64,000 bases of DNA, from NCBI GenBank assembly GCA_035275405.1, contig DATEMU010000014.1, positions 1 to 64,000 on the forward strand, written 5' to 3'. The first letter of the stretch is position 1, and the number at the start of each line of letters is the position of its first letter. Both the position numbers and the translations under genes were made by a program. Below, one piece after another: positions 1,637 to 51,540 of this stretch. This DNA is from Phycisphaerae bacterium. GTDB taxonomy: Bacteria > Planctomycetota > Phycisphaerae > UBA1845 > UTPLA1. The notes beneath the pieces were generated by a model. It was not told where the DNA came from and searched no databases. It saw only the letters and a program-made list of their open reading frames with translations.

Positions 1637-1750
1637 CCCTGAGGGCTGGAGCCGGACGGTGGAAGCATGGAAACTCTGCGCGGATGGCAGTGACAATCAC
1701 TGGCTAGACTGCCTCGTCGGCTGTGCCGTCGTGGCGCCGATCCAGGCGCG
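1637..1750 (+). pseudogene. Terminase 3' fragment (scar C)
   Basis: The stretch matches the terminase C-terminal region around the WKLRVDGSDNHWLDG block, reading here as GWSRTVEAWKLCADG and then SDNHWLDCLVGCAV. Similarity stops at about 1750, before the natural gene end. There is no start codon of its own. It is one of at least six short copies in this window, all on the plus strand. Confidence 0.85.
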
Positions 1751-1824
1751 ATCCTATTCAGCGCCGATGCAAGGCCTGCTCCGCGCCCGCGAATCAAGCT
1801 GCCTACTCTGCAGGGGGTTCGGCG

Positions 1825-2007
1825 ATGATTCCACACCCTCTCAAGCCTAAAGAGAAGTTTCAGAAACAGCGCGGCCTGCGCTACCCAAAGTGCGGCTGTG
1901 AGCATTTCCGGGTCATCTATAACCGCGCTTGGGGTGGCAATTTGCGTCAACGGCGCGAGTGCCGATATTGCGGACACCGGACCACGACGGCGGAACGAGC
2001 GCAGTGA
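1825..2007 (+). CDS. Small NrdR-like zinc-ribbon protein
   Basis: A 60-residue basic protein starting at the ATG at 1825 (MIPHPLKPKEKF). The frame is open further upstream, but that part runs through the terminase scar. It has CGCEHFRVIYNRAWGGNLRQ followed by RECRYCGHRTTTAE. The layout of C-C, an aromatic/basic strand, R-R-R-x-C-x-x-C-G-H-R-x-T-T is the zinc-ribbon pattern of NrdR and of many phage zinc ribbons. It lacks the ATP-cone domain of true NrdR (about 150 residues), so it is probably a stand-alone DNA-binding ribbon carried with phage modules. The role is inferred only. Confidence 0.6.
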   Translation: MIPHPLKPKEKFQKQRGLRYPKCGCEHFRVIYNRAWGGNLRQRRECRYCGHRTTTAERAQ

Positions 2008-2119
2008 ATATCGAATCCGTCGTGTGTGAGTGTCTTAAACCTTTAAACCGCAGTCGAAGTTCTTGTGTAGAGCGACCAAAACGACCGATTGTCTCATTTG
2101 GCGCGAAGCCCTAAGTTTA

Positions 2120-3795: not shown

Positions 3796-3995
3796 ATGAC
3801 GGTGGAGGAATGAAAGCTTCGCGTCGATGGGCAGCGCCAGCCATTGGCTGGACGGCGTCGTCGGCTGCGCCGTGGCTGCCTCCATCCAGGGCGTCGAGCC
3901 GCTGGAGATGAAGATCTCCCAGCCCAATCGCCGGCGGGTATCCTTCGCGGAGATGCGGCGGCGGCGGGAGGAGGTGCGGCGGGCGGCACCCTAAG
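3796..3995 (+). pseudogene. Terminase 3' fragment (scar D)
   Basis: Corresponds to the last ~65 codons of the terminase: GTGGAGGAATGAAAGC (an in-frame TGA where the parent has TGG), then the GTCGTCGGCTGCGCCGT core, the GAGATGAAGAT segment and GCGGAGATGCGGCG up to a stop near 3994. One extra G relative to the intact copies near 3829 shifts the frame. It reaches the natural 3' end of the gene. Confidence 0.85.
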
Positions 3996-3999
3996 AGAA

Positions 4000-7154: not shown

Positions 7155-7270
7155 AGGCTTCATCCGGCCCGATGCCCGGGGCCGGCCAGGAGGCGGCCAT
7201 CTATGCCGGGCTGGAAAGATTGACTGAGGCGACGATCGGCTGCGAGTGGCTTCGTGAGCCGTGGATTCGG
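7155..7270 (+). pseudogene. Terminase internal fragment (scar E)
   Basis: ATGCCCGGGGCCGGCCAGG through GAGTGGCTTCG reproduces the terminase segment MPGAGQEAAIYAGLERLTEA and TIGCEWLREP. It comes from the middle of the nuclease domain rather than the gene end, unlike the other scars. It abuts the stop of the HAF/PEP-CTERM gene on the other strand and may have supplied the extra 3' codons of that gene. Confidence 0.85.
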
Positions 7271-11626: not shown

Positions 11627-11844
11627 GCCGAGATGACAGAACCTATCCGGTGGCTTTCCCATGCCCGCACTGTGGCTTCGATTGCCGCGTACAGGCAAAG
11701 AATGGGATCACGCGTTGCCCTGAGTGCGCAGGGCAACTTCCTGACGTTCATGGAATCGGAAGCCCGCTCGTAGCATGGAAACTAATGAGCGCCCGCTTCC
11801 TCACACCTCAAACACCTTCAAAACCTCATCCCCGTAATGGTTGA
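11623..11844 (+). CDS. Small zinc-ribbon protein
   Basis: 73 residues from ATG 11623, again overlapping the previous stop as ATGA. CPHCGFDCRVQAKNGITRCP then EC gives two C-x-x-C knuckles; there are no membrane helices. Its last 44 bases overlap the 3' end of the convergent methyltransferase gene. It may have arisen by truncation of a full-size neighbour. Confidence 0.6.
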   Translation: MSRDDRTYPVAFPCPHCGFDCRVQAKNGITRCPECAGQLPDVHGIGSPLVAWKLMSARFLTPQTPSKPHPRNG

Positions 11845-14506
11845 TCACCTTCACTGCGATCTTGCCGGTCTGGGGCTTGGCGAAGGGGCGGCTCGTCGTA
11901 CTGTAGAGGCTGGACCACGCCGCCTCATCGATCTCGGCGCGGAGGGCGCGCTTGAGTTTGTCGTAGGGGCCGTCGTCGCCCTTGGCCGCGCCAGTGAAGT
12001 AGGCGTGGCGGACGAAAAAGCTCTCGCCGTTGTAGTCGGTATCGATGAACCAGCACGCGATGTCGTCCGTCGACGATGACCGAATCGCGCCGGTCGTCGG
12101 GTCGTACACGTCCAGCCCGCGGATCTCCGCGACGAGCGTCCCATCCTTTTGCTTCTGAAGGTCGATGTCCGGCTCGCCGAAGACCATAAACAGGTTGCCC
12201 GCCCCGGTTTTCTTGAGCAGCTCGTCCCCCATCGCGAGGTCGGGGTTCATCTTGGCCGCGAGCACCGTCAGCTTGCCGTAGCGCTTGGCTTCCTCGGCGA
12301 CATGCGGATCAAACGCGAAGCCGCAGACGATCAGCAGGTCGTGACCTACGCCCTGCACGGCCTCCTTCGCCGCCTCCTTCACCTGCATCGGGCCGACGGT
12401 CCCATGCTCCGGGCCGATGGAGACCGCAACGCGCCGCATCACGACTTCGCCGGCAGGTTGACCGAGGCCCCGGGCGGTGCCGCCCTCTGGCATTTCGGCG
12501 TACTCCCCTGTCGCGTGAATCCACGTGCCCGCGTGCGGATCGAGCCGCTCGAAGACAAGCCTTTCTCCCTTCTTCGTGTTCTGGACGCCCGCCTTGCGGA
12601 GGTTGTCGAGGATCATCGTGGCGAAGTCCTGCTGCTTGCGGGCCTCGGTCTCGCTGACGGTCCCGTCGAGGTTGTCATCGGCGGCGGCGAGGACGCGGTG
12701 CGGCGACAGGCTCTCGACCGTGAACGGGCCAGAGACGCGGATGCGCTTGAAGTCCAGATACGGTTTGTCGAATAGCGTCTCGGTATCGGCGTGGCGGGCA
12801 ATGGCGGCGTCGATCTCGGCGCGGCTCATCCCTTCGCGGATGTCCGGGTTGTTGGCAATAGATTTGAGCGTGACGTGCGGCACACGCTCGTACACGAAGC
12901 CCTTCTTGATGTCGCCTTCCGTCGCGTGCGCCGGCGGCGTCTTCCCGGAGAGTTCAGCTTCCTTGGCGACCCCCTCGGCTGAATCGGCGAGCAAATAATA
13001 GGGATATTTCGCGGTCATAAGCCGCGTTCGCGCCAGCGCCAGCGCGACGCGGCTGGTGTCGACTGTAATCCAACGGCGGCCCCACTGTTCGGCGACGAAT
13101 GCGGTTGTGCCGCTTCCGCATGTCGGATCAAGTACGAGGTCTCCCGGATCGGTGGTCATGAGGAGGCAACGCTCGATGACTTTCGGGCTCGTTTGCACGA
13201 CGTAAATCAACCCGGTGCCCAGCTGCACGGAATCCCAGCGGTCATTCAGAGGTACGACCGGAAAGTCGTCGACGAGACGCAGATAACGCAACGTTTGCCC
13301 GGCGGGTTTCGCTCTACCAGCCGCAACAAGTCTCGTCATCCCAGCATCGTCGGTCTTGAATGTCCCTCCGCCCGGTGTGTACGTAATACCGTTGAATTTG
13401 AACTGCCGAAGGTCGCCTTCGCCCAACGGGCGAGCGCTCGACAAGGATGTCAACTGAGCCCTGACACCGCCACCCCGCACCTCGTTAGATTCGATTTCTT
13501 CGGCCGTGAGTCTTCGCAATGCCCCATCCTTCTCCAGGACTTGGTCGTATCGCTCGAGCGCCAAGGTTCCGCGCATGCGCTCTTGGTACAGCTGCCGGTA
13601 CTTCACAATCTCCTTGTTCTTGGCATAGAACAGTAGGTAGTCGATGGTCTGTGGGACGAGCAACTGATCTGTGGAGCCTGTTTTCTGTACACAGATTGTT
13701 GCGATTTGGTTCTCGCTCCCCAAAATCTCGTCCAGCACGCAGCGGACAAGGTGCACGTTTTCATCACTGATTTGGACAAAGATACCGCCGGTTTCGGTGA
13801 GCAACTCGCGAGCAACGGTGAGGATGTCACGGATGTACGCGAGGTAGGAGTGGACGCCGATACGCCAGCAGTCGCGAAAGGCCCGAATCTGTTCCGGTTG
13901 CCGCGTGCAGTCCTCGGCCTTTCCATCCTTGACGTCACGTTTGCGGGTGCTGACCTGCCAGTTCGAGCCAAACTTGATGCCGTAGGGCGGGTCGAAGTAG
14001 ATTGTCTGGACCTTGCCCTTCAGACCTTCTTTCTCGGCGAGGCTGGTCATTACCAGCAGCGAGTCGCCGAGGATCATGCGGTTGGACCAGCTTCGCTGCC
14101 GGTCGTCGCGCTGGCTGTAGAAATCGACGCGGGCCTCGAAGTCGTCGCCGATCCCGTTGAAGTCCGTGCGGAAGAGGTCGAGCTGTGGACCGACGCCCGT
14201 GTCGGCAGCCTTCCGGTCCTCCGTCCGCCTCCGCAGGTCGTCGATCAGCCGATGCGGCGAGACGTGCTCCTGAACGTAGATCGGAACGACCGGTACGGCG
14301 AGGTCCTTAGCGTCCTGATCATCCTTGCCCTTCCAGACGAGTTGCGGATCGAGCGACGGATCGCGCGGGTAGAGCATGGTCTTTGGCGCCTTCTCATCCT
14401 CAGCCACAAAGTCGCGCAGCTCCTCGGTGGGGATGTTGGCGCGCTTGTCCTTGTGGCGGATGGACGCTACGGGCGCATGGAGGTTATTTGGTTTCTTTGC
14501 TGCCAT
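11801..14506 (-). CDS. mod: Type III restriction-modification DNA methyltransferase (Mod)
   Basis: 901-residue beta-class adenine methyltransferase. Catalytic motif IV TIYFDPPYG is at about residue 170 and the SAM-binding motif DPTCGSGTTAFVAEQWGRRW at about 460, the beta-class order with a target-recognition region between. The C-terminal 440 residues are a long extension of the kind found in large Mod proteins. A 110-residue N-terminal region precedes the MTase fold. It is the last gene of a minus-strand operon led by a type III-type helicase-nuclease (16613-19597), with two membrane protein genes between; its start overlaps the upstream gene by 23 bases. Recognition sequence cannot be read. 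Confidence 0.9.
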   Translation of the reverse strand: MAAKKPNNLHAPVASIRHKDKRANIPTEELRDFVAEDEKAPKTMLYPRDPSLDPQLVWKGKDDQDAKDLAVPVVPIYVQEHVSPHRLIDDLRRRTEDRKAADTGVGPQLDLFRTDFNGIGDDFEARVDFYSQRDDRQRSWSNRMILGDSLLVMTSLAEKEGLKGKVQTIYFDPPYGIKFGSNWQVSTRKRDVKDGKAEDCTRQPEQIRAFRDCWRIGVHSYLAYIRDILTVARELLTETGGIFVQISDENVHLVRCVLDEILGSENQIATICVQKTGSTDQLLVPQTIDYLLFYAKNKEIVKYRQLYQERMRGTLALERYDQVLEKDGALRRLTAEEIESNEVRGGGVRAQLTSLSSARPLGEGDLRQFKFNGITYTPGGGTFKTDDAGMTRLVAAGRAKPAGQTLRYLRLVDDFPVVPLNDRWDSVQLGTGLIYVVQTSPKVIERCLLMTTDPGDLVLDPTCGSGTTAFVAEQWGRRWITVDTSRVALALARTRLMTAKYPYYLLADSAEGVAKEAELSGKTPPAHATEGDIKKGFVYERVPHVTLKSIANNPDIREGMSRAEIDAAIARHADTETLFDKPYLDFKRIRVSGPFTVESLSPHRVLAAADDNLDGTVSETEARKQQDFATMILDNLRKAGVQNTKKGERLVFERLDPHAGTWIHATGEYAEMPEGGTARGLGQPAGEVVMRRVAVSIGPEHGTVGPMQVKEAAKEAVQGVGHDLLIVCGFAFDPHVAEEAKRYGKLTVLAAKMNPDLAMGDELLKKTGAGNLFMVFGEPDIDLQKQKDGTLVAEIRGLDVYDPTTGAIRSSSTDDIACWFIDTDYNGESFFVRHAYFTGAAKGDDGPYDKLKRALRAEIDEAAWSSLYSTTSRPFAKPQTGKIAVKVINHYGDEVLKVFEV

Positions 14507-15146
14507 TCATTGGGTCCGCGTCATTGGTCTTCGGGTCTTGAGGTTCACTTGTCATGCCCAGGAGCGTTCGGAATTCTTTTTCCAACGCATCCAAAGCCGG
14601 ATCAATCGATTCTTTGATTTCGTCGAATCTCTCGTCGAGATCGAGGCTGGCGTTTTCCGGTGCGGGCCTTTGAAGCCTAGTGAACGTGTTCGCCAAGGTG
14701 ACGATCGTGTTTGAAACGTCGGTCACACGTTGCGCCGTATCCGCCGGCAAAAAGATACGGCGAGGGAAGTAATAGTCTCGAAAAGCGTCATTTGCTCCGA
14801 AGACTATTTTTCGTTTGGTTTCCAAGTCCGGTTCGTCCCCCATCGTGAGAAAACGAGCATAGTTAGCAACAGCAGCGTGCAGTTCCGACAATTTTTGATA
14901 GGTACGCGCGATAACCATCGCCTGACGCTCATACACGGAACGGAATCTCACCTCGTGCTCGATCGCGACAAGTTGCAGATCATTTCGCAACCTTTCCATC
15001 TCGATATCGTGTGCATGCCCCAGTTCAACCCTATACTTTGCGACATCTTTATTCAAGAAGTGGACGACGATCGTTCGGGTAAGCCATCCTATCGCGGCGA
15101 CTCCGATTCCAAATCTACCAAGTTGGGCGAAAATCTCAAACCACAT
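14484..15146 (-). CDS. Membrane-anchored coiled protein in the type III R-M operon
   Basis: 220 residues. A single N-terminal hydrophobic segment (IFAQLGRFGIGVAAIGWLTR, about 4-23) is followed by a long helical cytoplasmic part rich in charged residues (HDIEMERLRNDLQLVAIEHE) and a flexible polar tail. Family not recognised beyond the common 'one helix plus coiled body' plan. It overlaps mod by 23 bases and lies 12 bases after the gene at 15159-16571, so it is firmly in the operon. Possible roles are a membrane sensor or a scaffold for the restriction complex. This is inference from position. Confidence 0.65.
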   Translation of the reverse strand: MWFEIFAQLGRFGIGVAAIGWLTRTIVVHFLNKDVAKYRVELGHAHDIEMERLRNDLQLVAIEHEVRFRSVYERQAMVIARTYQKLSELHAAVANYARFLTMGDEPDLETKRKIVFGANDAFRDYYFPRRIFLPADTAQRVTDVSNTIVTLANTFTRLQRPAPENASLDLDERFDEIKESIDPALDALEKEFRTLLGMTSEPQDPKTNDADPMNGSKETK

Positions 15147-15158
15147 GGTGACGGCCTC

Positions 15159-16571
15159 TTAAGCCTTCTTCGATAGTGACTCGGCGAGGTCCTTAAGCGT
15201 CTCGATCAACGTCTTCGCAAGACCTGGTTCGATCGCAACCTTGGCGTCGTTGGCACTTTCGTCGCTTAACTCCCCAGGTGGCCGAGGACTCTGTGCCATA
15301 AACGCAGCGATAACCGAAGCGCGCTCGGCTGACCCGTGGGCGAGGCCTTTATAGGCAAGATAAAAGCGCCGGACTTCCAAATCATCGCGCTCTGCGCGAA
15401 GTGTCTCAAGAAAATGGTTGCGGTAGATTCCGGCAATGTACCTTAGAATTGCCAGAAAAAATGAGCTAACGACAATCGCGATGACAAACCGCTTTATTAG
15501 CTCGGGTATCCGGCTCCCGGGATTTTCAAGTGAGCGCCTCGCTTCAAGAACTAGTCCATCCAGGGCCTTTGCAGTCGGGCGCAGCGCTTTCTCGCTTTCC
15601 GACTCCGCAACCTCGGCTCTATCAATCGCTGAGCGGACTGCAGTTAACGACGTTAAGTACCTCCTGTCGTCGTCGTTGTCGATTTTGAACCCCTTTTCTG
15701 CTTCGCTGAAGGCATTACTCAGCGCCTTCAAATCATGCGTGGTTTGCGATTCTTCAATCGCCCTCTTTATTTCAGCTTTAGTCTGCGAATTGCCAACACT
15801 GGGAGTAGGGTACTGCAAATCGCGAAGCGCCTCACTCGCGGCGCTGTGGGTGGCAGCGGCGTAAACAGTGGGACGAATTCGTTCGAGAGATACATTTACT
15901 GTACCGAGTGCATCATCGATGCGGGCAAGGATTCTAGGAGCACCTGCTGCTTCGTCGTTCACCAATAGGTAACCAAAATACGTGACGATAACTCCTGATA
16001 CGGCCCCGACTAGAAGCGTCAGGACAAGAAACCAGTTCGTTGCGAAAGCGAATCTCCTCCTCCGATCGTTGATCTTGTTAATAATGTAGGGTAGGTAATC
16101 GAGACCATATTCCGCATCATCCGCACCTCGCGGCAACGCTTCGCCAAGGGCCGTAAAAAAACGGTCGGAGTGAATGATCCGTTTGACGGCATCGCGTAGA
16201 ACAGAATCATCGTCAAGCCTAGACAATTCACTTACACTTCTCGATGTCGGTGCAACAATTTTCCATACTAACCAGACACCAAATGCAACCATAGCGATAT
16301 TAGCCACCGAAGACAGCGCGCGCAATATTGGAAGGAGTATTTCATGCCAAACACGAGGTGAAAGGTCATATTGATAAAAGAAACGCTCGGATTCGCGAGA
16401 GTATTCGATCTCGGAAAGCAGTATATAACCTGCAAGGAAGGCAGGGGCAATAATGGTGGCTAAATTAGGGAGTTTTAGGCGTCGAAGAAAAAAGAAAGTC
16501 AGTCCTGCAGCTGCGATACTGCAATAAAGGGCTACTTGAAACGGGAATTGCGGAAGCATAATTGACTCCAC
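15159..16571 (-). CDS. Multi-helix membrane protein in the type III R-M operon
   Basis: 470 residues from GTG 16571, or 466 from ATG 16559. Five or so predicted helices: VALYCSIAAAGLTFFFL, LATIIAPAFLAGYILL, VANIAMVAFGVWLVWKI, WFLVLTLLVGAVSGVIVTYF and a C-terminal FVIAIVVSSFFLAILRYIAG. Between the last two lies a 140-residue loop with heptad-like helices. A 90-residue charged tail follows. No enzyme motif seen. Position between res and mod is unusual for type III systems. It could be an abortive-infection-type membrane effector or a sensor; alternatively an unrelated passenger. Confidence 0.65.
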   Translation of the reverse strand: MESIMLPQFPFQVALYCSIAAAGLTFFFLRRLKLPNLATIIAPAFLAGYILLSEIEYSRESERFFYQYDLSPRVWHEILLPILRALSSVANIAMVAFGVWLVWKIVAPTSRSVSELSRLDDDSVLRDAVKRIIHSDRFFTALGEALPRGADDAEYGLDYLPYIINKINDRRRRFAFATNWFLVLTLLVGAVSGVIVTYFGYLLVNDEAAGAPRILARIDDALGTVNVSLERIRPTVYAAATHSAASEALRDLQYPTPSVGNSQTKAEIKRAIEESQTTHDLKALSNAFSEAEKGFKIDNDDDRRYLTSLTAVRSAIDRAEVAESESEKALRPTAKALDGLVLEARRSLENPGSRIPELIKRFVIAIVVSSFFLAILRYIAGIYRNHFLETLRAERDDLEVRRFYLAYKGLAHGSAERASVIAAFMAQSPRPPGELSDESANDAKVAIEPGLAKTLIETLKDLAESLSKKA

Positions 16572-16612
16572 ATGATTATGTTTCGTTGAGATCGCATAAG
16601 TGCTGTACCGTT

Positions 16613-37257: not shown

Positions 37258-38628
37258 ATGCAAATTGAAATGATGCCGATCGATGCGGTTCGCGAGTACC
37301 AGAAGAACCCGCGGGTCATCAGCGAGGAAGCCATCGCCGCCGTGGCCCAATCGATCAAGTCGTTCGGGTTCAAAGTCCCGGTTATTTTGGACGCCGACGG
37401 CGTTTTAATTGCCGGGCATTCACGGATCCGGGCTGCTCGGAGTTTGGGGCTGAAGGAGGTTCCTGCGATTCGCGCGACGGATCTGACGCCCGAGCAGATC
37501 AAAGCGTTTCGTATCGCAGATAATCAGGTCGGGACATTGTCCAAGTGGGACTTTGATTTGCTCCCGATCGAGATGGCCGAGTTGAAGGACGTCAACATCG
37601 ACTGGGGGTCGTTTGGATTTGACGCCGACCAGCTGGCCGTCATATTCGACCCGGGCGTGAAGCAAGGTTTGACCGATCCCGACGAAATTCCCGCGCCACC
37701 CGACGCGGCCACGACGAAGCCCGGCAACCTGTGGCTGCTGGGCGACCACCGCCTACTCTGCGGCGATTCCTCCAGCGCCGCCGACGTCGATCGATTGCTC
37801 GACGGCGCGCCCATCCACCTCGTGAATACCGACCCGCCATACAACGTCAACGTCGAGCCACGATCGAACAACGCTCGCGCCGCCGGTTCGAAGGCCCTTC
37901 CAGCCATAGCGAAGAAGAAGGCTCACCTCCAAGGGTTCGATGACGCCAGGCAGGGGAAGCCGAAGCCGACGACGAGCAAGATGCGGGCGAAGGACCGCGT
38001 ACTGGCGAACGACTTTATGTCGGCCGCCGATTTCGACAAAGTCCTGCTCGCATGGTTCGGCAACATTGGCCGCGTGCTGGTGCCGGGCGGATGCTTCTAT
38101 ATCTGGGGCGGCTTTGCGAATTGGGCGAACTATTGCCGAGCGTTGGCGACCTGCGGTCTTTACTTCGCGCAGGGGATCACTTGGGTCAAGGACCATCCGG
38201 TGCTGGGCAGAAAAGATTTTATGAACGACTGCGAGCACGCGTGGTATGGATGGCGGGAAGGCGCTGGCCACAAGTTCTATGGGCCAAACAATGCGAGAAA
38301 TGTCTGGCCCATCAAGAAGGTCAATCCACAATCGATGATCCATTTGACGGAGAAGCCGGTGGAGCTGGCGATTCGCGCCATGCAGTATTCCTCGCGCGCC
38401 GGCGAAAACGTTTTGGACCTCTTCGGCGGCAGCGGTTCGACGTTGATCGCGGCGGAACAGACCGGCCGCAAGGCGTATTTGATGGAACTCGATCCGCTCT
38501 ATTGTGATGTAATCGTTTCTAGATTTGAAGGCTTTAGTGGGACAAAGGCCAAGCAAATCAATGCCGAGGATAAATCTGCGTCAACTGAGAAGTTTGGTGA
38601 GCAAAGCGCCGAGAATCACGCCAAGTAA
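37258..38628 (+). CDS. ParB-domain / DNA methyltransferase fusion
   Basis: 456 residues. Residues 1-100 are a ParB/Srx-like nuclease-fold domain (IDAVREYQKNPRVISEEAIA, VLIAGHSRIRAARSLGLKEV with the G-H-x-R motif). From about 160 comes a DNA methylase of the N4/N6 class: GNLWLLGDHRLLCGDS, catalytic TDPPYNVN near 190, then LDLFGGSGSTLIAAEQTGRK near 385 (SAM-binding). This fusion is common in phages and integrative elements and may protect element DNA from host restriction, including the type III system in this window. Complete and apparently functional. Its 3' end overlaps the convergent gene by 48 bases. Confidence 0.9.
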   Translation: MQIEMMPIDAVREYQKNPRVISEEAIAAVAQSIKSFGFKVPVILDADGVLIAGHSRIRAARSLGLKEVPAIRATDLTPEQIKAFRIADNQVGTLSKWDFDLLPIEMAELKDVNIDWGSFGFDADQLAVIFDPGVKQGLTDPDEIPAPPDAATTKPGNLWLLGDHRLLCGDSSSAADVDRLLDGAPIHLVNTDPPYNVNVEPRSNNARAAGSKALPAIAKKKAHLQGFDDARQGKPKPTTSKMRAKDRVLANDFMSAADFDKVLLAWFGNIGRVLVPGGCFYIWGGFANWANYCRALATCGLYFAQGITWVKDHPVLGRKDFMNDCEHAWYGWREGAGHKFYGPNNARNVWPIKKVNPQSMIHLTEKPVELAIRAMQYSSRAGENVLDLFGGSGSTLIAAEQTGRKAYLMELDPLYCDVIVSRFEGFSGTKAKQINAEDKSASTEKFGEQSAENHAK

Positions 38629-40300: not shown

Positions 40301-40537
40301 ATGTCAGGACATGTCCTTAGCCCGCCTACCCAACCTAACAGGCCTGCGCTGAATCCCAATGCGCTGTCTGTGGCGGATGCGGCGCGCCTGCTCAGCGCCG
40401 GATGCGGCCAGTTGATTACGGCGGAGATGATCGAGGCCGACATCGCCGCCGGCGCGGCGGCCAATGGCGACGGAATGATCAACCTCGTGCACTACGCGGC
40501 GTGGCTGGTGAAGGAGATGGCCGGTTGTGGCGATTGA
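40301..40537 (+). CDS. Small protein preceding the terminase, possible small-subunit
   Basis: 78 residues from ATG 40301 (GGGAGG 7 bases upstream). NPNALSVADAARLLSAGCGQ and LITAEMIEADIAAGAAANGD look like a short helix-turn-helix followed by a repeat-like motif. It overlaps the terminase start by 11 bases, the place where a terminase small subunit is usually found. That role is suggested by position only. Confidence 0.6.
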   Translation: MSGHVLSPPTQPNRPALNPNALSVADAARLLSAGCGQLITAEMIEADIAAGAAANGDGMINLVHYAAWLVKEMAGCGD

Positions 40538-42854
40538 TCCCCGGCGTCTGCGCCCGACGCAGTTGGTCCAACTGCTCAACTCGACGCCGCTGGGAACCGT
40601 CACCAGCGAACGGCAACTCTATCGTCATCGCGAGCGGGCCGGCCTGCGGATCGTCGCCGCCGGCGATTCCTCCAAGCTTGATCTGCTTCGGTATCTGGCA
40701 TGGCTGGTCCTTGAGCGCCATCGTCCCCGCCCCGAATTCGATGGCCTGACCGGCTACGAGGCCCAGAAGGAACGGGCCCGCGAACGCAACCTCCTGCTCT
40801 CCCGCTCCGGCCGGGACATCGGTGAGCTGCCCGCCGTGGTGAATGTCGAACGGAAGGAGAAGGCCTCCCGCGACTTCCGGTACTTCTGCGAGCAGTATTT
40901 CCCCAAGACCTTCTGCCTGCCCTGGTCGGACGACCATCACAAAGTCATCGGCCTCATCCAGGTCGTGGTCCTGGAGGGCGGACAGTTCGCCATTGCGCTT
41001 CCCCGCGGCGGCGGCAAGACCGTCCTGGTCGAGACCGCCGCACTCTGGGCGATGCTGTACGGCCATCGCCCCTTCGTGGCCATCATCGGGCCGGATGAAG
41101 GCCATGCGGTCGAGCGGGTCAAGAACCTCCGCACCGAGCTGGAACACAACGATCTCTTGTTGGAAGACTTTCCGGAGGTCTGTCTGCCCATTCGTAGGCT
41201 GGAAGGCATCAACCAGCGGCGGCTGCTCTATCAGGGCGAGTACATCCACATGGAGTTCACCGCCAAGCGGATCGTGCTGCCCTCCATTCCCGGCAGCAAG
41301 GCGGCCGGCGCCATCATCGAGACGACCGGTCTCACCGGCCAGATCCGCGGCCTAAATTACAAAATGCGTGACGGCAGGACGCTGCGCCCGTCCCTGTGCA
41401 TCGTGGATGATCCGCAGACGAGGGAATCGGCGCACAGCCCCACCCAATGTCACCATCGCGAAAAGATCATCAACGGCGACATCATGGGATTGGCCGGTCC
41501 GGGCGCTTCCATCGCCGTGTTACTGCCCTGCACCGTCATCCAACCGGACGACCTGGCCGATCGGCTCTTGGACCCCGAGAAGAACCCCCAATGGAATGGC
41601 CAGCGGACCAAAATGGTCTATGCCTGGCCGAAGAACGAGGAGCTGTGGGCCAAGTACGTGGCCCTGCGGCGTGACACCCAGCGGTCCTGCGGCGGACAAC
41701 TGGGGAAGATCGCCGAGGCCTGCAACGCCTACTATGCGAAGCACCGCGAGGCGATGGATAAAGGGGCCGTCATCGCCTGGGCGCACCGCCACAAGGCCGA
41801 GGAGCTGTCGGCCCTTCAGCATGCCTGGAACCTCCGCATCGACCTAAAAGAGGAGGCCTTCTTCGCGGAATATCAAAATGAACCCTTGCCGGAAGGCCAA
41901 GTCGACGTCGATCTGCTCACCGCCGACCAGATCGCCGCCAAGGGCAATGGCCTGAAGCGCGGGATTATTCCGAAGGAGGCCACGAGCCTCACGATGTTCG
42001 TCGATGTCCAGGGCAAGGCGCTCTTCTACATGGTCGTCGCCTGGGGGCAGGACTTCACCGGCTACGTGGTCGACTATGGCACCGAGCCGGATCAGAAGCG
42101 GTCCTACTTCGCGCTGCGTGAAGTCCAGCGGACCCTGGCCCAGGCCATGCCCGGGGCTGGTCAGGAGGCGGCCATCGTGGCGGGGCTGGAAAGATTGACC
42201 GAGGCGACGATTGGCCGAGAGTGGCTGCGCGAGGATGGGACCATCGCCCGCATCGATCGCTGCCTGATCGATGCCGGCTGGGGGCCGATGACCCATACGG
42301 TCTATCAATTCTGTCGGCAGAGTAAGTACGCCCACGTGGTTGTACCCAGCTATGGGCGCTACGTCGGGGCCGCCAGCCTTCCCTTCACCGACTACCAGAA
42401 GCAGCCCGGAGACCGGATAGGCCTGAATTGGCGCATCCCCGCCACGTCTAAGCGGATTTGTCGGTACGTGATCTTCGACACCAATTTCTGGAAGAGTTTC
42501 ATTCAATCGCGCCTTGCCGTGGCCAAGGGCGATCCAGGTTCGCTGACGCTCTTCGGCCGCAAGCCCGAACTTCACCGCCTGTTGGCCGAGCACCTGACCA
42601 GCGAGTACCGCGTACCCACCGAAGGCCGGGGCCGGACCGTCGAGGAATGGAAGCTCCGCGTGGATGGTAGTGACAATCACTGGCTGGATGGCGTCGTCGG
42701 CTGCGCCGTCGCCGCCTCCATCCAGGGCGTCGAGCTGGCGGAGATGAAGCTCTACAAGCGGAAGTTTCGGCGCGTCAGCTACGCGGAGATGCGACACAGG
42801 ATCCTAAACGGGGATTCAGCCAGGCCGCCGACCAACGAGTCGCAGATGTCTTAA
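40527..42854 (+). CDS. Phage terminase large subunit, full length
   Basis: 775 residues from GTG 40527 (AAGGAG 10 bases upstream). The N-terminal ~110 residues contain helices for portal or small-subunit contact. ATPase: P-loop FAIALPRGGGKTVLVETAAL at about 153-172, Walker B SLCIVDDPQTRESA near 290. Nuclease: LTMFVDVQGKALFYMVV near 488, RIDRCLIDAGWGP near 575 and the C-terminal DGSDNHWLDGVVG block. It packages DNA into procapsids, but no capsid or portal genes are near, so a helper phage or loss of those genes is implied. It is the parent type of the scattered fragments at 1.6, 3.8, 7.2, 46.8, 48.7 and 51.5 kb. Confidence 0.9.
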   Translation: MAIDPRRLRPTQLVQLLNSTPLGTVTSERQLYRHRERAGLRIVAAGDSSKLDLLRYLAWLVLERHRPRPEFDGLTGYEAQKERARERNLLLSRSGRDIGELPAVVNVERKEKASRDFRYFCEQYFPKTFCLPWSDDHHKVIGLIQVVVLEGGQFAIALPRGGGKTVLVETAALWAMLYGHRPFVAIIGPDEGHAVERVKNLRTELEHNDLLLEDFPEVCLPIRRLEGINQRRLLYQGEYIHMEFTAKRIVLPSIPGSKAAGAIIETTGLTGQIRGLNYKMRDGRTLRPSLCIVDDPQTRESAHSPTQCHHREKIINGDIMGLAGPGASIAVLLPCTVIQPDDLADRLLDPEKNPQWNGQRTKMVYAWPKNEELWAKYVALRRDTQRSCGGQLGKIAEACNAYYAKHREAMDKGAVIAWAHRHKAEELSALQHAWNLRIDLKEEAFFAEYQNEPLPEGQVDVDLLTADQIAAKGNGLKRGIIPKEATSLTMFVDVQGKALFYMVVAWGQDFTGYVVDYGTEPDQKRSYFALREVQRTLAQAMPGAGQEAAIVAGLERLTEATIGREWLREDGTIARIDRCLIDAGWGPMTHTVYQFCRQSKYAHVVVPSYGRYVGAASLPFTDYQKQPGDRIGLNWRIPATSKRICRYVIFDTNFWKSFIQSRLAVAKGDPGSLTLFGRKPELHRLLAEHLTSEYRVPTEGRGRTVEEWKLRVDGSDNHWLDGVVGCAVAASIQGVELAEMKLYKRKFRRVSYAEMRHRILNGDSARPPTNESQMS

Positions 42855-42978
42855 GCAACACGTCGGAAGGCGTCGTCGCATAGTCTGAGGTGATTTTCTC
42901 CGGGCGACGCCTGGGCCACTATGGCCTCGATCGCTTCGCCGCCGACTGGGCCGTGGCGATCTCGATCTAGGTGTCGAG

Positions 42979-45660
42979 CTATGGGAGGTGAAGTTCACCC
43001 GACTCGCCGCCCGATTCACCGCGCAGAATTCTCACCACCTCGCCGGGATTAGCAGCGTGGAGAAGCGCGTCGCGGCTCGCATCCGTGGCCGCGATTTTCG
43101 CCAACTGTCCCAGCAATGCCAGTTGAGCCTCGGGTTGCTCAGCCGGAGTGACGAGCAGAAACAAAAGGCGCACCAGCTCTTGCGCCGCTGGCGAAAACAC
43201 GACACCTTCGGTCGAGCGACCGAAGACGACAAGCGGGGCGGCAAGCTTCGGACAGCGCGCGTGAGGAATCGCGATCCCGTTCCCGAGATCCGTGGAAAGC
43301 TCCTCCTCGCGCGCCAAGGTGAGGTTGACGATCTGCAACTTGGTAACCTCGGAGGGAAGCTTGTTGCGGGGAATCGCTTCGACGAGTTCACGAATACATT
43401 GCTCGCGCGTCTTGGCCACCAACTCCAACACGATTCCGCCGTTGGCCACGGCGTCCGCCAAGGAAACCCTGGCTTCGTGCGGATATTCGTCCTCAATTTG
43501 GCCAACGACCTGTTCGAGAATGTCCTCCAGGGTAATCAATCCAACCGGACGATCTCCATCTTCCACCACATACACGGTCGCGCCCTCTGCCTGCATGCCC
43601 GTCAAAGTGGATTCGATGCTTTCGTCCGGGCGGATGGCTTTTAGGGGGCGAAGCATCCGCGACCAGTCGGAATTCGACGCGTGCGCGATCAAGTCTTTCG
43701 TGAGCAGGTATCCGGTCGCTCGCCCCGTCTGGGGTTCGACCACCGGCCACCGGGAAAATCGCTCTTGTGCGACTTGCGCGAGCACGGCGTTAATGTCTGC
43801 GGATGCCGGCAACCATCGGACGCGAGGCCACGGAACCATGACGCTTCCCACGCGCTGGGAGCTGATGTTGGAGATGTTCTCCATAATGAGTCGGAGCCGA
43901 AGGTCCTTGATCTTTCGGTCCGCCGCCTCACGGTGCATACCAGTGTCCGCGAGAACGAGGCGCGCGAGCGCCACAGCGGCCTCCGCCTCTTCGAAGACTG
44001 CCGCACTTGCGCCGGCGCGCTCCAGGTCTTCTCGTTCCCGAAGATACCGGGCCCGTACCAGGATGCGGACGTTTGTATTGAAGTTTCGGGCTGCAGTTAC
44101 CACAGCCACCCGGTCCGACGAATGAGGAAGTGTCAGCACCAGGTGCGACGCCCGCCGCACGCCGGCTTGATCCAGGATGCTCTCGTTGGATGCATCCCCG
44201 AATATGGCGGTCTGGCCCTCGGCGTTTAGCGCTGACACGGTGTCCATGTTGAGATCGACGACGACCGTGGAAAGCTTGGCTTCCTGCAACAATCGATGAA
44301 CGGATCGGCCGACCGGACCGTAGCCGACAACGATGGCAAGTCGCTGATGGTCCCGGGAAGCACGCGCCACCACGTTGGAGGCTGCCTTGTTGATGCTGAG
44401 TACTCGCCGCTCCGCTCGGTTGTTCATCAGCCTCCACAAGCGGGGGCGCTTTCGCAGCCACGACTCTGCCTTCGGCAGTGACCGAAACAGCAGCGGGTTC
44501 AGTGTGATCGAGATGATCGCGGCGGCGACCAGGACGTTGTGCCCCGCCTCGGTCATTAACCCGTGGCGGCGCGCCAAGTCCGACAGGATGAACGAGAACT
44601 CCCCGATTTGAGCCAGACCGATCGCCACGGTGAGGGCGGTCCGTGCTGAATGGCCCAGTAGCGCCACGATAACGAGAGCCGCCGCGGGCTTTGCCAGCAG
44701 GATGATTCCCAACGCTGCGGCGACCATCAACGGCTTCTGAATCAGAAACGCCGGATCGAAGAGCATTCCGACCGAGACGAAGAACAGAACCGCGAACGCA
44801 TCCCGCAGGGGAAGCGCGTCTGCCGCAGCCTGGTGGCTCACGGGCGATTGCGCCACCACCATGCCGGCGAGGAAGGCACCCAGGGCCATCGACGCCCCGA
44901 AGAAGAAGTACGAGCCGGCGGCAACGGCGATGGAAAACACGAGGACTGTGAGGGTGAACAACTCGCGTGAACGGAGCTTTGCCACCCGCACCAGCACCCC
45001 GGGGACAATGCGGTAGCCGGCCAGCATTACTATCGCCACCAGCGCTCCGAGCTTCAGCATCGCTACGCCAAGCGTCCGCCACAGCGAAGACCCTGTCGCT
45101 GAAGCGGCGATCGCTCCGCCCTCAACTGCAGCGCTCTCGCTACTTTGACCAAGGACGGGAATCAGGACCAGCAGAATGACCGTGAAGATGTCCTCCACAA
45201 TGAGCCATCCAACTGCGACATGCCCTTGGGGAGAATTGAGCGCGTCGGCATCCATGAGAACCCGCATCAAAACGACCGTGCTGGCCACGGCCATAGCCAT
45301 CCCAATTACGGCTCCGGTCTTGATGGGAAGATCAAACGCCGCAAACACGGCGATAGCCAATGCCGTCGCGACCAGACTCTGTCCGATCGCCCCGGGGATC
45401 GCGACACCCTTCACCGCCAGGAGATCCTTCAGATGGAAATGGAGGCCGACGCCGAACATCAACAGGATGACCCCGACTTCGGCCAGTTGCTGCGCGAGGT
45501 GAACGTCGCCCACGAAGCCGGGGGTGTGAGGCCCAATCAGGACGCCGGCCAGGAGATAGCCCACAATCGGCGAGAGCCGTAGCCACTGGGTAAGCAGGCC
45601 CAGCAGCCACGCCGCGGTGAACGCCGCCGCGATCGTCGTGATCAGGGAAAGATCGTGCAT
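42979..45660 (-). CDS. Kef-type cation:proton antiporter with RCK, CBS and EIIA domains
   Basis: 893 residues from ATG 45660 (GAGG 9 bases upstream). Residues 1-390 are a CPA2-type antiporter with about 12 helices (SPIVGYLLAGVLIGPHTPGF, LMFGVGLHFHLKDL, VASTVVLMRVL, GLAQIGEFSFIL). A TrkA-N Rossmann domain follows (LAIVVGYGPVGRSVHRLL, about 440-560). Then come a CBS pair (PWPRVRWLPASADINAVLAQ, VEDGDRPVGLITLEDILEQV, about 620-745) and a PTS EIIA-type domain (GNGIAIPHARCPKL with the active-site His, about 750-890). Inner-membrane K+/H+ or Na+/H+ exchange controlled by nucleotide, CBS ligand and possibly phosphorylation. All domains look intact. Confidence 0.9.
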   Translation of the reverse strand: MHDLSLITTIAAAFTAAWLLGLLTQWLRLSPIVGYLLAGVLIGPHTPGFVGDVHLAQQLAEVGVILLMFGVGLHFHLKDLLAVKGVAIPGAIGQSLVATALAIAVFAAFDLPIKTGAVIGMAMAVASTVVLMRVLMDADALNSPQGHVAVGWLIVEDIFTVILLVLIPVLGQSSESAAVEGGAIAASATGSSLWRTLGVAMLKLGALVAIVMLAGYRIVPGVLVRVAKLRSRELFTLTVLVFSIAVAAGSYFFFGASMALGAFLAGMVVAQSPVSHQAAADALPLRDAFAVLFFVSVGMLFDPAFLIQKPLMVAAALGIILLAKPAAALVIVALLGHSARTALTVAIGLAQIGEFSFILSDLARRHGLMTEAGHNVLVAAAIISITLNPLLFRSLPKAESWLRKRPRLWRLMNNRAERRVLSINKAASNVVARASRDHQRLAIVVGYGPVGRSVHRLLQEAKLSTVVVDLNMDTVSALNAEGQTAIFGDASNESILDQAGVRRASHLVLTLPHSSDRVAVVTAARNFNTNVRILVRARYLREREDLERAGASAAVFEEAEAAVALARLVLADTGMHREAADRKIKDLRLRLIMENISNISSQRVGSVMVPWPRVRWLPASADINAVLAQVAQERFSRWPVVEPQTGRATGYLLTKDLIAHASNSDWSRMLRPLKAIRPDESIESTLTGMQAEGATVYVVEDGDRPVGLITLEDILEQVVGQIEDEYPHEARVSLADAVANGGIVLELVAKTREQCIRELVEAIPRNKLPSEVTKLQIVNLTLAREEELSTDLGNGIAIPHARCPKLAAPLVVFGRSTEGVVFSPAAQELVRLLFLLVTPAEQPEAQLALLGQLAKIAATDASRDALLHAANPGEVVRILRGESGGESGELHLP

Positions 45661-46807: not shown

Positions 46808-46950
46808 ACCAAACGCTCGTTGACGCCGTCGCCGCGTCCCTGCAAGGCGTCGAGCTGCCGGAGATGCAACACTACCAGCGGAAGTTCCGGCGGGTCACCT
46901 TTACGGAGATGGGGCGCGGCGGGAAAGGGAGGAGCGGGCGATGGCGACAC
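46808..46950 (+). pseudogene. Terminase 3' fragment (scar F)
   Basis: GACGCCGTCGCCGCGTCC, CAAGGCGTCGAGCTGCCGG, GAGATGCAACACTACCAGCG and CGGAAGTTCCGGCGGGTCAC reproduce the terminase end AASLQGVELPEMQHYQRKFR. The end is degenerate (ACGGAGATGGGGCGCGGCG). The region 46657-46807 has no recognised gene; 46718-46785 holds an in-frame stop-broken stretch that reads like protein (LALTVDGNNYDAQQ) of unknown origin. 46951-47158 is empty. Confidence 0.85.
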
Positions 46951-48577: not shown

Positions 48578-48711
48578 CGAAACTGTTGCGCGAGCGCGCA
48601 GATAAATTATTGTTCAGGGTATTTGTTTCGACAGAGGCGAAGCTCAACGACGGCGCGGACCTAATCAGCCCCATCCCCATGCGCATCTCGAACTACCGGA
48701 ACATCGACGAT

Positions 48712-48845
48712 TAGCTGGGCGGAGTCGTCGGTTGCGCCGTCGCCGCGTCCATCCAGGGCGTCGAACTGCCGGAGATGAAGATCTCCCGTTCCAAGCGGCG
48801 GCGGGTTACGTTCGCGGAGATTTAGCAGCGCCGGGCAATGATACG
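48712..48845 (+). pseudogene. Terminase 3' fragment (scar G)
   Basis: GGAGTCGTCGGTTGCGCCGT, CCATCCAGGGCGTCGAACTG, GAGATGAAGATCTCCCGTTC and GCGGAGATTTAGCAGCG reproduce the terminase 3' end with an in-frame TAG. It abuts the stop of a frame that ends GADLISPIPMRISNYRNIDD (48655-48717), a protein-like end of unknown origin. From 48846 to 49110 I see nothing but the promoter region of the FG-GAP gene. Confidence 0.85.
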
Positions 48846-49110
48846 GCTGGATACTGATATGCCGACCTGACTAAAAAAAAGTACACCGAGCAGATTGCTC
48901 CGCGCTCCCATTCTTCCTCGCATTTCATGAACAGTAGTGTAAGTTGCTTTGAAACCAGGATTTGGAGGGCAAGCCAAGCGCTCGACCCGCGGCCGAAAAG
49001 TGCGAATCACAAGGTTTGAATCGGGAGTCGAAAGCACTAGGCGCGGAGGGGGTGTCAACCGGTATGATGGAGTTGTCGCTTGACTGCCGGTGACCAGAGG
49101 AGGACTCGCC

Positions 49111-51465
49111 ATGAAATTGGCCGTATTCCTGGGCGTCGTTGGAACCGCGCTATTCGTTGATTCAGCCGGCGCTCAAAGTCAAGTCCCGGACGGTCTCTCG
49201 GCCTCGGACTGGTCGGACATCCGCGCGGCATACGACGCGAATTGTCACTCGGCATTCGCCGTCGAGGGCGGCTATCAGGCGCGCAACCCCGGCCAGCATT
49301 GGCGGACTCGGTTTGACGGCCGCGGCTTCGTCACAACGCCGGATGCCGGTCAATGGTCTTGGGGGTTGGAGCTGGTGAGCTTCGGATTCGGAGGCTCTCA
49401 GCGGACGGTCGAGACGCCAATCTGCGCCGACGCTTCCGGACAACGCGTCGTGTATGAGTGGGACGAGTACCTGACGGAATGGTACGTCAACGACCAGCGC
49501 GGCCTGGAGCACGGCTACACGGTGCATCAGCGGCCCGACGGCGGCGTGGGGGAGCTGCGCTTCACGCTGGCCGTGCGCGGGAACCTTTGCCCGCAGATCA
49601 GTAGCGAAGGGCGCGGGGTGACGTTCATCGACAAGAACGGCGCAGCGGTCGTGAACTACACCGGCCTGACCGTCTTCGACGCCACAGGTAGGACGCTGCC
49701 CGCATGGTTCGAGCAGGAACGTGCAACGCCTGCTTCCGGCAGTCCTTTTGTAATTCGTAATTCGTCATTCGACATTCTCTCGATCGTCGTGGACGAGCGA
49801 GAGGCGGTCTATCCCCTCACCATCGATCCCATCGCCCAGCAGGCCTACCTCAAGGCCTCGAACACCGGGGTGGGGGACTTATTCGGCAACTCGGTAGCCG
49901 TGTCGGGTGACACCGTGGTGGTTGGCGCATACCGAGAGCGCAGTAGCGCCACGGGCGTGAACGGCAACCAGGCTGACAACACTCTTTCAGCCGCCGGCGC
50001 GGCCTATGTTTTTGTCCGCAGCGGGACGACCTGGAGCCAGCAGGCCTATCTCAAGGCGTCGAACACCGGTGCGAGCGATGAGTTTGGATACTCGGTGGCC
50101 GTCTCGGATGCCACCGTGGTGGTCGGGGCATGGCAGGAGGACAGCAACGCCACGGGCGTGGATGGCAACCAGGCCGACAACAGTGCCGCTGATTCGGGCG
50201 CGGCCTACGTCTTCGTCCGCAACGGGACGACCTGGAGCCAGCAGGCCTACCTTAAGGCGTCCAACACCGGTGCGAGCGACTTATTCGGCCACTCCGTCGT
50301 GGCGAGTGGCGACACAGTGATAGTCGGGGCGCTTCAAGAAGACAGCAATGCCACGGGCGTGAATGGCGACGAGAGCGACAACAGCGCTTCAAATGCCGGC
50401 GCGGCATACATCTTTGTCCGCAGCGGGACGACCTGGAGCCAGCAAGCCTACCTCAAAGCGTCGAACACCGATGTCGGGGACAACTTCGGCTCTTCCGTGG
50501 CCGTATCGAGCGACACGGTCGCGGTCGGGGCGTGGCTAGAAGACAGCAACGCCACGGGAGTGAATAGTAACCAGACCGACAATAGTGCTGTTGATTCCGG
50601 CGCGGCGCACGTCTTTGTCCGTAGTGGTACGACTTGGAGTCAGCAGGCCTACCTCAAGCCGTCGAATACCGGAGCGGATGACCGGTTTGGAATCTCGGTA
50701 GCGGTGTCGGGCGACACGGTGGCGGTCGGAGCAGTTAATGAGGACAGTAGCGGCACGAGTGTGGGCTGCAACCAAGCCGACGACAGTGCCGTTGCTTCCG
50801 GCGCGGCATATGTCTTCGTCCGCAGCGGCACAACCTGGAGCCAGCAGGCCTACCTAAAGGCATCGAATACCGACGCGGGGGATGCTTTTGGCCGGACGGT
50901 GGCGGTGTCGGGCGACACGGTGGTTGTCGCGGCGATCTTCGAAGCCAGCAACGCCACCGGCGTAAATGGAAACCAGGCCGACAACAGTTCAACAATTTCC
51001 GGCGCGGCATACGTATTCTCCCGTTTCGGCACAACATGGTTTCAGCGGGCCTACCTAAAAGCTTCAAATACGGATGCGTTCGATTATTTTGGTCATTTTG
51101 TAGCCGTCTCCGGCGACACAGTGGTGATCGGGGCGCCTTTCGAGGACAGCAGCGCCACGGGCGTGAACGGCGACCAGGCCAACAACAGCGCCGTATCTTC
51201 CGGCGCCGCCTACGTCTTTCTCATTCCGCCAGACTGCGACGGTGATGGTTGGGACGATGCCACAGACAACTGTCCGCTCACCGCGAACCCCGGCCAGGAA
51301 GACGCCGATGGCGACGGCGCAGGTGATGCGTGCGACGTGTGCCCCAACACGCCACCAGGCCTGCCCGTCGAGCCCAACGGCCGACCGCTTCGCGACTGCA
51401 ATAACGACTGCCTCGTCGACGGTTCTGACGTGCAGTGCATCGCCGATGAGATGCTGAATCAATAA
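49111..51465 (+). CDS. Exported FG-GAP repeat protein with calcium-binding tail
   Basis: 784 residues from ATG 49111 (AGAGGAGGACTCGCC upstream), giving a clean signal peptide MKLAVFLGVVGTALFVDSAG. Residues 25-230 are an unassigned N-terminal domain. Then seven FG-GAP repeats of exactly 67 residues follow, each with QAYLKASNT, a DxFG motif, SVAVSGDTVVVGA and AAYVFVRSGTTWSQ. The C-terminus carries DCDGDGWDDATDNCPLTANP and DADGDGAGDACDVC, a thrombospondin-3/dockerin-like calcium-binding region, then DCLVDGSDVQCIADEML. Surface or secreted beta-propeller protein. Unlike the HAF proteins it lacks a PEP-CTERM tail. Confidence 0.8.
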   Translation: MKLAVFLGVVGTALFVDSAGAQSQVPDGLSASDWSDIRAAYDANCHSAFAVEGGYQARNPGQHWRTRFDGRGFVTTPDAGQWSWGLELVSFGFGGSQRTVETPICADASGQRVVYEWDEYLTEWYVNDQRGLEHGYTVHQRPDGGVGELRFTLAVRGNLCPQISSEGRGVTFIDKNGAAVVNYTGLTVFDATGRTLPAWFEQERATPASGSPFVIRNSSFDILSIVVDEREAVYPLTIDPIAQQAYLKASNTGVGDLFGNSVAVSGDTVVVGAYRERSSATGVNGNQADNTLSAAGAAYVFVRSGTTWSQQAYLKASNTGASDEFGYSVAVSDATVVVGAWQEDSNATGVDGNQADNSAADSGAAYVFVRNGTTWSQQAYLKASNTGASDLFGHSVVASGDTVIVGALQEDSNATGVNGDESDNSASNAGAAYIFVRSGTTWSQQAYLKASNTDVGDNFGSSVAVSSDTVAVGAWLEDSNATGVNSNQTDNSAVDSGAAHVFVRSGTTWSQQAYLKPSNTGADDRFGISVAVSGDTVAVGAVNEDSSGTSVGCNQADDSAVASGAAYVFVRSGTTWSQQAYLKASNTDAGDAFGRTVAVSGDTVVVAAIFEASNATGVNGNQADNSSTISGAAYVFSRFGTTWFQRAYLKASNTDAFDYFGHFVAVSGDTVVIGAPFEDSSATGVNGDQANNSAVSSGAAYVFLIPPDCDGDGWDDATDNCPLTANPGQEDADGDGAGDACDVCPNTPPGLPVEPNGRPLRDCNNDCLVDGSDVQCIADEMLNQ
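49840..51246 (+). repeat. Seven tandem 201-bp units coding FG-GAP repeats
   Basis: CAGGCCTACCT-type starts at 49840, 50041, 50242, 50443, 50644, 50845 and 51046: seven units at exactly 201-base intervals with no indels. The later units (50644 onward) are visibly more diverged. Confidence 0.9.
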
Positions 51466-51504
51466 CTCCTCGCCGGCCGCCTTTGGAATCCCGAGAGCAC
51501 CATG

Positions 51505-51540
51505 CACTGCGTCGTCGGCTGCGCCGTCGCCGTTTCCATG
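51505..51540 (+). pseudogene. Terminase 3' fragment (scar H)
   Basis: GCGTCGTCGGCTGCGCCGTC and GCCGTTTCCAT, about 30 bases of the terminase CGTCGTCGGCTGCGCCGTCG core, 40 bases after the FG-GAP stop. This is the shortest fragment. The stretch 51546-51915 holds no gene but contains the motif at 51688. Confidence 0.6.

What the first reader, a model, noticed from the sequence alone, without database searches (positions are those of the whole stretch)
1637..51540. One terminase gene leaves at least six partial copies across 50 kb, all in the same orientation
Besides two long copies (2-1471, 40527-42854), pieces lie at 1637-1750, 3796-3995, 7155-7270, 46808-46950, 48712-48845 and about 51505-51540. 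Most share the core GTCGTCGGCTGCGCCGTCGC and several run to the natural 3' end; all are on the plus strand. They sit between cargo genes, as if the gene end were the right boundary or recombination point of an element family that inserted repeatedly, leaving scars. Simple decay of one prophage does not explain so many copies of the same end.
Basis: partly seen in the sequence, partly recalled or inferred. Interest (0 to 1): 0.75.

Follow-up and report, generated by a model that had tools for sequence, protein, structure and literature searches.

The report
Stacked terminase gene tails in satellite islands
Behind the DNA-packaging (terminase) genes of mobile islands in a planctomycete-like bacterium lie several short leftover ends of other terminase genes, which look like fossil joints left when one mobile element replaced or re-equipped another.

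Summary
The repeats are real and above chance. The genome holds nine short 3' ends of a gpA-type terminase gene (six in the window), in the same orientation as the copy beside them, plus two internal pieces. They derive from different alleles, not one gene. The stack behind the first copy also contains the 3' end of a second terminase family (PF20441/"P27" type, 1502-1624). The region is a tandem array of three integrase-led islands in a tRNA-Gly(CCC) gene, bounded by four copies of a 42-bp tRNA end. Two islands carry terminase but no portal or capsid of the related phages, in most of which the gene is followed by portal and capsid. P27-type terminases of other genomes of the order show such stacks (G001: two tails starting 34 and 174 bp behind the intact stop); 160 gpA loci of relatives do not. 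Best explanation: the joint behind the terminase is where a mobility/packaging module and a cargo module are repeatedly re-joined, and off-register joints leave the last ~110-260 bp of a displaced terminase gene. How they are joined is not settled.

The parts
2..1471 (+). TerL copy of island I1 (gpA endonuclease domain PF20454); 5' part probably on contig C7, which shares an exact 134-bp overlap (C12 shares it too)
1502..1624 (+). orphan 3' end of a different terminase family (PF20441 / P27 type); last ~120 bp, ends in a stop
   Evidence: E 2.8e-13; E 3.2e-5; only PF20441 match in the genome, below the cut-off, E 0.087; 0 in 40 shuffles
1639..1827 (+). orphan gpA TerL tail (profile 2078-2270 of 2271)
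3798..3965 (+). orphan gpA TerL tail (profile 2094-2263)
7170..7257 (+). internal piece of gpA TerL (profile 1601-1688), not a 3' end
11801..19597 (-). cargo of I1: type III methyltransferase (11801-14506) and ResIII/type III restriction-like helicase (16613-19597)
29256..29297 (+). 42-bp tRNA-Gly(CCC) 3' end = joint between islands I1 and I2; identity to the C7 island start runs to 29319 (64 bp, 98%)
29353..30774 (+). tyrosine integrase of I2 (PF00589)
   Evidence: relatives at the start of I1 and I0
33535..36111 (+). NrS-1 polymerase-like replication protein (PF22763 domain)
37258..38628 (+). ParB-N / N6_N4 DNA methylase
40527..42854 (+). intact TerL of I2 (775 aa; PF20454, phrog_38, phrog_15)
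42946..43006 (+). orphan gpA TerL tail piece 92 bp behind the intact stop
   Evidence: 77-79% to C15 tail, E ~1e-6
46823..46914 (+). orphan gpA TerL tail (profile 2162-2256)
48707..48833 (+). orphan gpA TerL tail (profile 2138-2264)
49090..51465 (+). cargo: FG-GAP repeat protein
51509..51539 (+). 31-bp core-only TerL tail piece; a 31-bp sequence at 51552-51582 recurs behind a C13 tail
51916..58458 (+). cargo: giant RHS-repeat protein behind the last tail

Best explanation
These are tRNA-anchored, satellite-like islands: an integrase at the left, then replication and DNA-modification genes, then the large terminase (with no portal or capsid of the related phages), then cargo such as a restriction system and giant RHS or FG-GAP proteins, then the tRNA repeat. 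The boundary just behind the terminase stop is the recurrent joint between the mobility/packaging module and the cargo module. Each time one element's module was joined to another's cargo, the incoming terminase stayed whole, and the last ~110-260 bp of the displaced terminase (gpA or P27 type) was left in front of the cargo it used to precede. Later rounds stacked further tails. Shown: the stack, the two families, the recurrence in other genomes, the tandem tRNA array, the absence of that portal and capsid. Inferred: that each tail is the footprint of one replacement; that longer pieces are lost by homologous recombination with the intact gene; and that the joining is by recombination between co-resident islands or by lateral-transduction-like transfer of the right part.
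For: Nine gpA tails and two internal pieces in the genome; no orphan 5'-end piece was found (the only 5' part, on C7, is cut by the contig end, and a weak 52-bp match at 40466-40517 lies directly before the intact gene). A second family's tail within the same stack. In relatives, intact P27-type TerL is followed on the same strand by orphan tails in 4 of 10 places scanned with the DNA profile (G001 two tails, G008, G027, G052_C111) and in 1 of 37 viral loci (L376). Orphan P27 tails with no intact copy in the stretch fetched: G003 (two), G055 (two), G049, G110, G001:C1, G090:C72. G052 has two copies of one left module that part at the end of a truncated integrase 3' end, one copy then running into an orphan tail. 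Tandem islands with 42-bp tRNA ends between dnaK-side and esterase/trehalose-side flanks. Portal and capsid-protease of the related phages are absent from the own-genome stretches held, and that portal from the whole genome (no positive control in that search), whereas in 17 of 23 gpA places the portal lies in the stretch behind TerL. Precedent: lateral transduction made a chimeric prophage joined at the packaging region, with a defence gene behind it (PMC12829572, abstract and section 14 read).
Against: Left edges vary (about 109-257 bp from the gene end for gpA; about 117-221 for P27). Random joints should also give longer pieces, which are absent beside intact genes and must be assumed lost. 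Six of the 10 intact P27 places and 36 of 37 P27 viral loci show no P27 tail. Two gpA places without portal in more than 17 kb behind TerL (G013, G043_C26) have no gpA tail either, so a lost capsid module and tails do not always go together. Outside this genome short gpA pieces show no clear 3' bias (my reading: four tail-only, three head-only), though one search is a lower bound: it missed 3 of the 12 own-genome matches. No replacement event was caught and no empty site found. Helper dependence and packaging are untested.
Confidence: 0.5

Rival explanations
1. Site-specific insertion into the terminase 3' end: elements integrate into the tail, restore the gene with their own copy of the end, and push the old end downstream, much as helper-embedded satellites integrate in late genes.
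For: Sharp left edges. G090 body-only pieces end at profile 1102-1103, close to where many P27 tails begin. An integrase clade targets prophage late genes, with a Terminase_1 site (PMC10111431, abstract and passages). A truncated integrase 3' end lies between TerL and the tail in G052.
Against: Left edges are not at one position. Gaps of about 6-92 bp between stop and tail (G027, G001, I1, C13, I2) leave no room for an element. No relative of the islands' integrases in the window cargo. 179 gpA genes show no extra synonymous constraint in the tail (0.90-0.92 against a mean of 0.83).
Confidence: 0.15
2. Captured packaging signals: each tail is a pac/cos stretch of a different helper phage, kept so that several helpers can package the island.
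For: Same orientation, mostly 110-260 bp, two families stacked. One PICI is reported to share a 258-bp, 90% identical cos-region stretch with its helper prophage (PMC10111431, passage).
Against: No synonymous constraint in the gpA tail; the constraint is at the 5' end of the gene (codons 1-20, 0.60). Several pieces are only 31-61 bp or degraded.
Confidence: 0.1
3. Lateral-transduction ends: packaging starts in or near the TerL tail of an integrated element and runs into the flank; the packaged end, beginning with a tail, is joined behind a resident TerL.
For: Tails head the cargo segments, all in one direction; cargo includes restriction genes; lateral transduction produces chimeras at the packaging region (PMC12829572, section 14).
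Against: The paper ties it to pac phages; the packaging type here is unknown (that gpA-type terminases usually cut cos is recalled, not tested). No packaging site was located.
Confidence: 0.15
4. Ordinary decay of tandem prophages with no special joint; only the conserved gene part is still recognisable.
For: Accretion at tRNA genes is common (general knowledge); left edges vary; gpA pieces in other genomes show no 3' bias.
Against: No pieces of other island genes in the cargo zones searched. The conserved part of TerL left of the tails is absent, not merely weak. Recurrence in a second family.
Confidence: 0.1

Closest known systems
Phage satellites / PICIs (phage-inducible chromosomal islands)
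   Same: Integrase-led islands, here in a tRNA 3' end, with a replication zone, a late gene and defence cargo; no capsid found
   Different: Encode a large terminase without portal or capsid of its relatives; TerS, AlpA and helper dependence not shown; stacked terminase tails not described in what I saw of the papers
Helper-embedded PICIs (PMC10111431)
   Same: Terminase and other late genes as integration targets; late-gene capture
   Different: No element or integrase of the island type sits between the terminase and the displaced tail here
Chimeric prophages made by lateral transduction (PMC12829572)
   Same: Joint at the packaging region, cargo behind it exchanged
   Different: Here seen only as fossils; packaging mode unknown
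Phycisphaerae/Planctomycetota phages with gpA-type TerL
   Same: Homologous terminase (56-67% protein identity for the best-ranked loci), primase upstream in L300
   Different: In most of them TerL is followed by portal (phrog_21) and capsid-protease (phrog_4523); no gpA tails behind it
Tandem accretion of genomic islands at tRNA genes
   Same: Identical 3'-end repeats between islands
   Different: Adds an internal record of terminase 3' ends

Membership tests
Phage satellite (PICI-like) | site-specific integration in a tRNA 3' end with own integrase | tested here: met
   repeats and integrase genes by sequence only; activity not tested
Phage satellite (PICI-like) | no complete set of virion genes | tested here: inconclusive
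   portal/capsid of the relatives absent in the stretches held, that portal not found in the whole genome; unrelated capsids not excluded, not all ORFs scanned
Phage satellite (PICI-like) | mobilisation by a helper phage | not testable with these tools
   needs induction experiments
Phage satellite (PICI-like) | AlpA/TerS signature genes | not tested
   not searched specifically
gpA-TerL phage of relatives | TerL followed by portal and capsid genes | tested here: not met
Helper-embedded PICI | element inserted inside a late gene with split halves at both ends | tested here: not met
   no separate TerL body half in the genome search and no island-type integrase between TerL and tail
Lateral transduction chimera | headful packaging from the integrated element across attR | not testable with these tools
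   packaging site unknown
Diversity-generating retroelement (template/variable repeats at a gene 3' end) | reverse transcriptase beside the repeats | tested here: inconclusive
   none among the window ORFs scanned with Pfam; not all ORFs were scanned

The most novel reading that the evidence does not exclude
Large-terminase islands of the planctomycete lineage use the terminase 3' end as a standing exchange joint: cargo, including defence systems, is swapped behind a packaging gene, and each swap leaves a datable terminase stump, so the stack is a fossil record of successive satellites from different phage families.
Probability: 0.35. Interest if true: 0.7.

Novelty: new variant of a known kind. 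Interest (0 to 1): 0.5.

Why it matters
If each tail marks one past replacement, these arrays let one read the order and kind of satellites that occupied a locus, and make it testable whether the packaging gene is the hinge at which mobile islands trade defence genes. They also show islands that carry a large terminase without the portal and capsid of its relatives, an arrangement I did not find described in the listings and passages seen.

Tried and rejected
I first read direct repeats at +220, +225 and +544 bp behind TerL in three relatives as attR. Rejected: in all three the phage portal follows them.

An embedded att/cos site in the gpA tail: synonymous entropy shows no constraint there.

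A site-specific P27 breakpoint: the edges cluster loosely (181-221 bp for 9 of 15, my count; where that call aligned G027 and G001a to the intact gene itself, their edges are taken), but the cluster is not exact.

Longer origin of two tails: tblastn with the file holding both window terminases extended 3798 and 48710 weakly leftward; the left parts alone score no better than shuffles (one search was the same script failing on a file name).

Empty site: homologues of the right-flank esterase in G040, G001, G023 and G008 have no tRNA-Gly within 1.5 kb; inconclusive.

The 31-bp repeat behind two tails occurs only twice in the genome with up to 3 mismatches (a 28-base form of it); no explanation found. 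A P27-like trace near 48877 and a GpA-like tail behind the G034 terminase were seen by eye only and not counted. Homing endonucleases cutting the terminase were considered (PMC10448857, abstract only) but not tested. One call included a permissive tRNA run whose thousands of hits were ignored. Pieces at contig edges (G023, G090 C33/C35/C31/C26, G049:C49) were left out of tail counts; split or permuted genes in L379 and L412 were not counted as tails. Of 13 long P27 matches, 10 were scanned with the DNA profile together with their flanks.
Full report
What was checked. A profile of terminase genes finds 1639-1827, 3798-3965, 7170-7257, 46823-46914 and 48710-48833 beside the two long copies, and nothing in 40 shuffled windows. 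The piece at 51509-51539 is only 31 bp (blastn E 6e-7). A seventh piece lies at 42946-43006, 92 bp behind the intact stop. One listed piece, 7170-7257, is internal. The long genes are gpA-type large terminases (PF20454, phrog_38/15).

Whole genome. The window is the first 64 kb of contig C14 of a 5.29-Mb, 19-contig genome. Further terminase copies are on C13 (intact), C12 (3' part at a contig end) and C7 (5' part at a contig end). Further tails are on C13 (two) and C15, and an internal piece is on C1. The end of C7 overlaps both the start of C14 and the end of C12 by exactly 134 bp inside the gene; including it, C12 and C14 are 87% identical over 1434 bp. In total there are nine tails and two internal pieces. 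Tails beside a terminase copy have its orientation. All nine tails overlap one 18-bp stretch of the gene (42704-42721 of the intact copy, from the coordinates; approximate for 42946-43006, whose alignment was converted by hand). Their left edges are sharp.

The islands. A 64-bp sequence before the integrase at 29353 recurs at C7:446415 (98%). Its first 42 bp recur at C7:396254, inside an intact tRNA-Gly(CCC), and at C14:70696. All are on the same strand. An integrase (PF00589) follows the first three in the order of the array, with 36-45% identity to each other. On the left flank lies dnaK; right of the last repeat lie esterase and trehalose genes. With C7 joined to C14 this gives three tandem islands, I0, I1 and I2, of about 50.2, 42.0 and 41.4 kb (computed from these coordinates). 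The join is supported by the 134-bp overlap and by the repeat order; C12 as the partner of C7 is not excluded. No gpA terminase was found in I0. Cargo includes a type III restriction system in I1, a restriction helicase/endonuclease near the end of I0 and FG-GAP and RHS proteins in I2. No pieces of the integrase, replicase or methylase were found in the cargo zones searched.

Relatives. P0001 matches 58 of 114 genomes of the order at E 0.001, distant terminases included. Of 80 genome and 80 viral loci (the best 80 of 237 and of 487), 69 and 79 hold a relative of the phage portal somewhere in the locus. Portal identity rests on PHROGs for L300 and L253, capsid-protease identity on L300 and L219. 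Of 23 intact or nearly intact gpA places taken from whole genomes, two of them this genome's, 17 have the portal in the stretch behind TerL. The six without are the two own copies, G011_C30 and G050_C12 (little sequence behind the gene), and G013 and G043_C26 (over 17 kb, and no tails). This genome has no match to that portal. Two relatives' contig lengths and coordinates agree with records titled Phycisphaerae/Phycisphaerales (G034 with L289, G050:C32 with L267), so the host is inferred to be a planctomycete of that group.

Tails are a wider phenomenon. Between the first terminase and the tail at 1639 lies the 3' end of an unrelated terminase family (PF20441), E 2.8e-13 with a DNA profile of that family. 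It is the only PF20441 match in the genome, and below the family's cut-off. In a search of 61 genomes 7 of 17 PF20441 matches were C-terminal stubs only, one of them at a contig edge (contig length). A whole-order search (114 genomes, 23 with matches) and a DNA profile show intact genes followed by tails in G001 (tails starting 34 and 174 bp behind the stop), G008, G027 and G052_C111: 4 of the 10 intact places scanned. One viral locus of 37 shows the same (L376). Left edges lie about 117-221 bp from the gene end. G090 has body pieces that stop at profile 1102-1103, near where many tails start. The gpA family outside this genome shows no such bias: no gpA tail behind TerL in 160 loci, and head-only as well as tail-only pieces, which scored few candidates per genome and missed 3 of 12 own matches.

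How it may work. The common denominator is a joint just behind the stop of a working terminase and inside the end of a displaced one. In G052 two copies of one left module part at the end of a truncated integrase 3' end; one then runs into a terminase tail. This looks like module exchange, with the terminase at the hinge. Lateral transduction is reported to produce chimeric prophages joined at the packaging region, with defence genes behind it (PMC12829572: abstract and section 14 read). Satellites capturing or entering late genes are known (PMC10111431: abstract, section 21 and passages read). No conserved DNA site was found in the gpA tail (179 genes), so a specific recombination or packaging site there is not supported. 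The upper length limit of tails can be explained by loss of longer direct repeats through homologous recombination; this is inference.

Novelty. Full-text searches for fragment-type terms with terminase found nothing relevant, and searches on satellites, terminase, Planctomycetes and tandem tRNA islands showed no description in their listings. The library lacks most subscription journals. I rate it a new variant of a known kind: satellite-like islands and module exchange are known; the stacked, multi-family terminase stumps are, as far as searched, not described.

Noticed in passing
G000:C7 last 134 bp, C14:1-134, C12 end; G090 C33/C35 starts: Assembly branches inside terminase genes: one left contig end shared exactly (134 bp) with two right contigs, and a 127-bp identical start of two G090 contigs that then diverge. 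May reflect population-level cargo switching or repeats.
   Followed up: partly
relatives' gpA phages, between TerL and portal (e.g. G029, G032, G050, G019, G002): A tRNA-Met(CAT) gene sits between terminase and portal in 10 of the 17 places with a portal, in an interval that varies from about 0.6 to 7.7 kb.
   Followed up: no
codons 1-20 of gpA TerL: Marked synonymous constraint at the 5' end of the gene (relative entropy 0.60), possibly a packaging site or overlap.
   Followed up: no
40466-40517 and upstream of TerL in G002, G034, G039, L247, L248: A stretch just upstream of the gene weakly resembles codons ~23-68 of the gene itself.
   Followed up: no
G001:C4 and G008:C13 TerL; L379: TerL open frames of about 900 aa with an insert of roughly 335 residues after residue ~154 (intein suspected, not tested), and a ~280-bp insertion in L379.
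   Followed up: no
51552-51582 and C13 (L044 reverse strand 3926-3956): A 31-bp sequence, 97% identical, follows truncated terminase tails at two places; a 28-base form of it occurs nowhere else in the genome with up to 3 mismatches.
   Followed up: partly
51916-58458; G055:C44; G082:C11: Giant RHS proteins lie within about 3 kb behind a terminase or an orphan tail in three genomes.
   Followed up: no
62891-64000: CHAT-domain protein in the cargo of island I2.
   Followed up: no
G052_C111, G052_C140, G049_C24: 3' ends of a tyrosine integrase on the same strand as the terminase or tail; truncated in G052, not checked for length in G049.
   Followed up: partly
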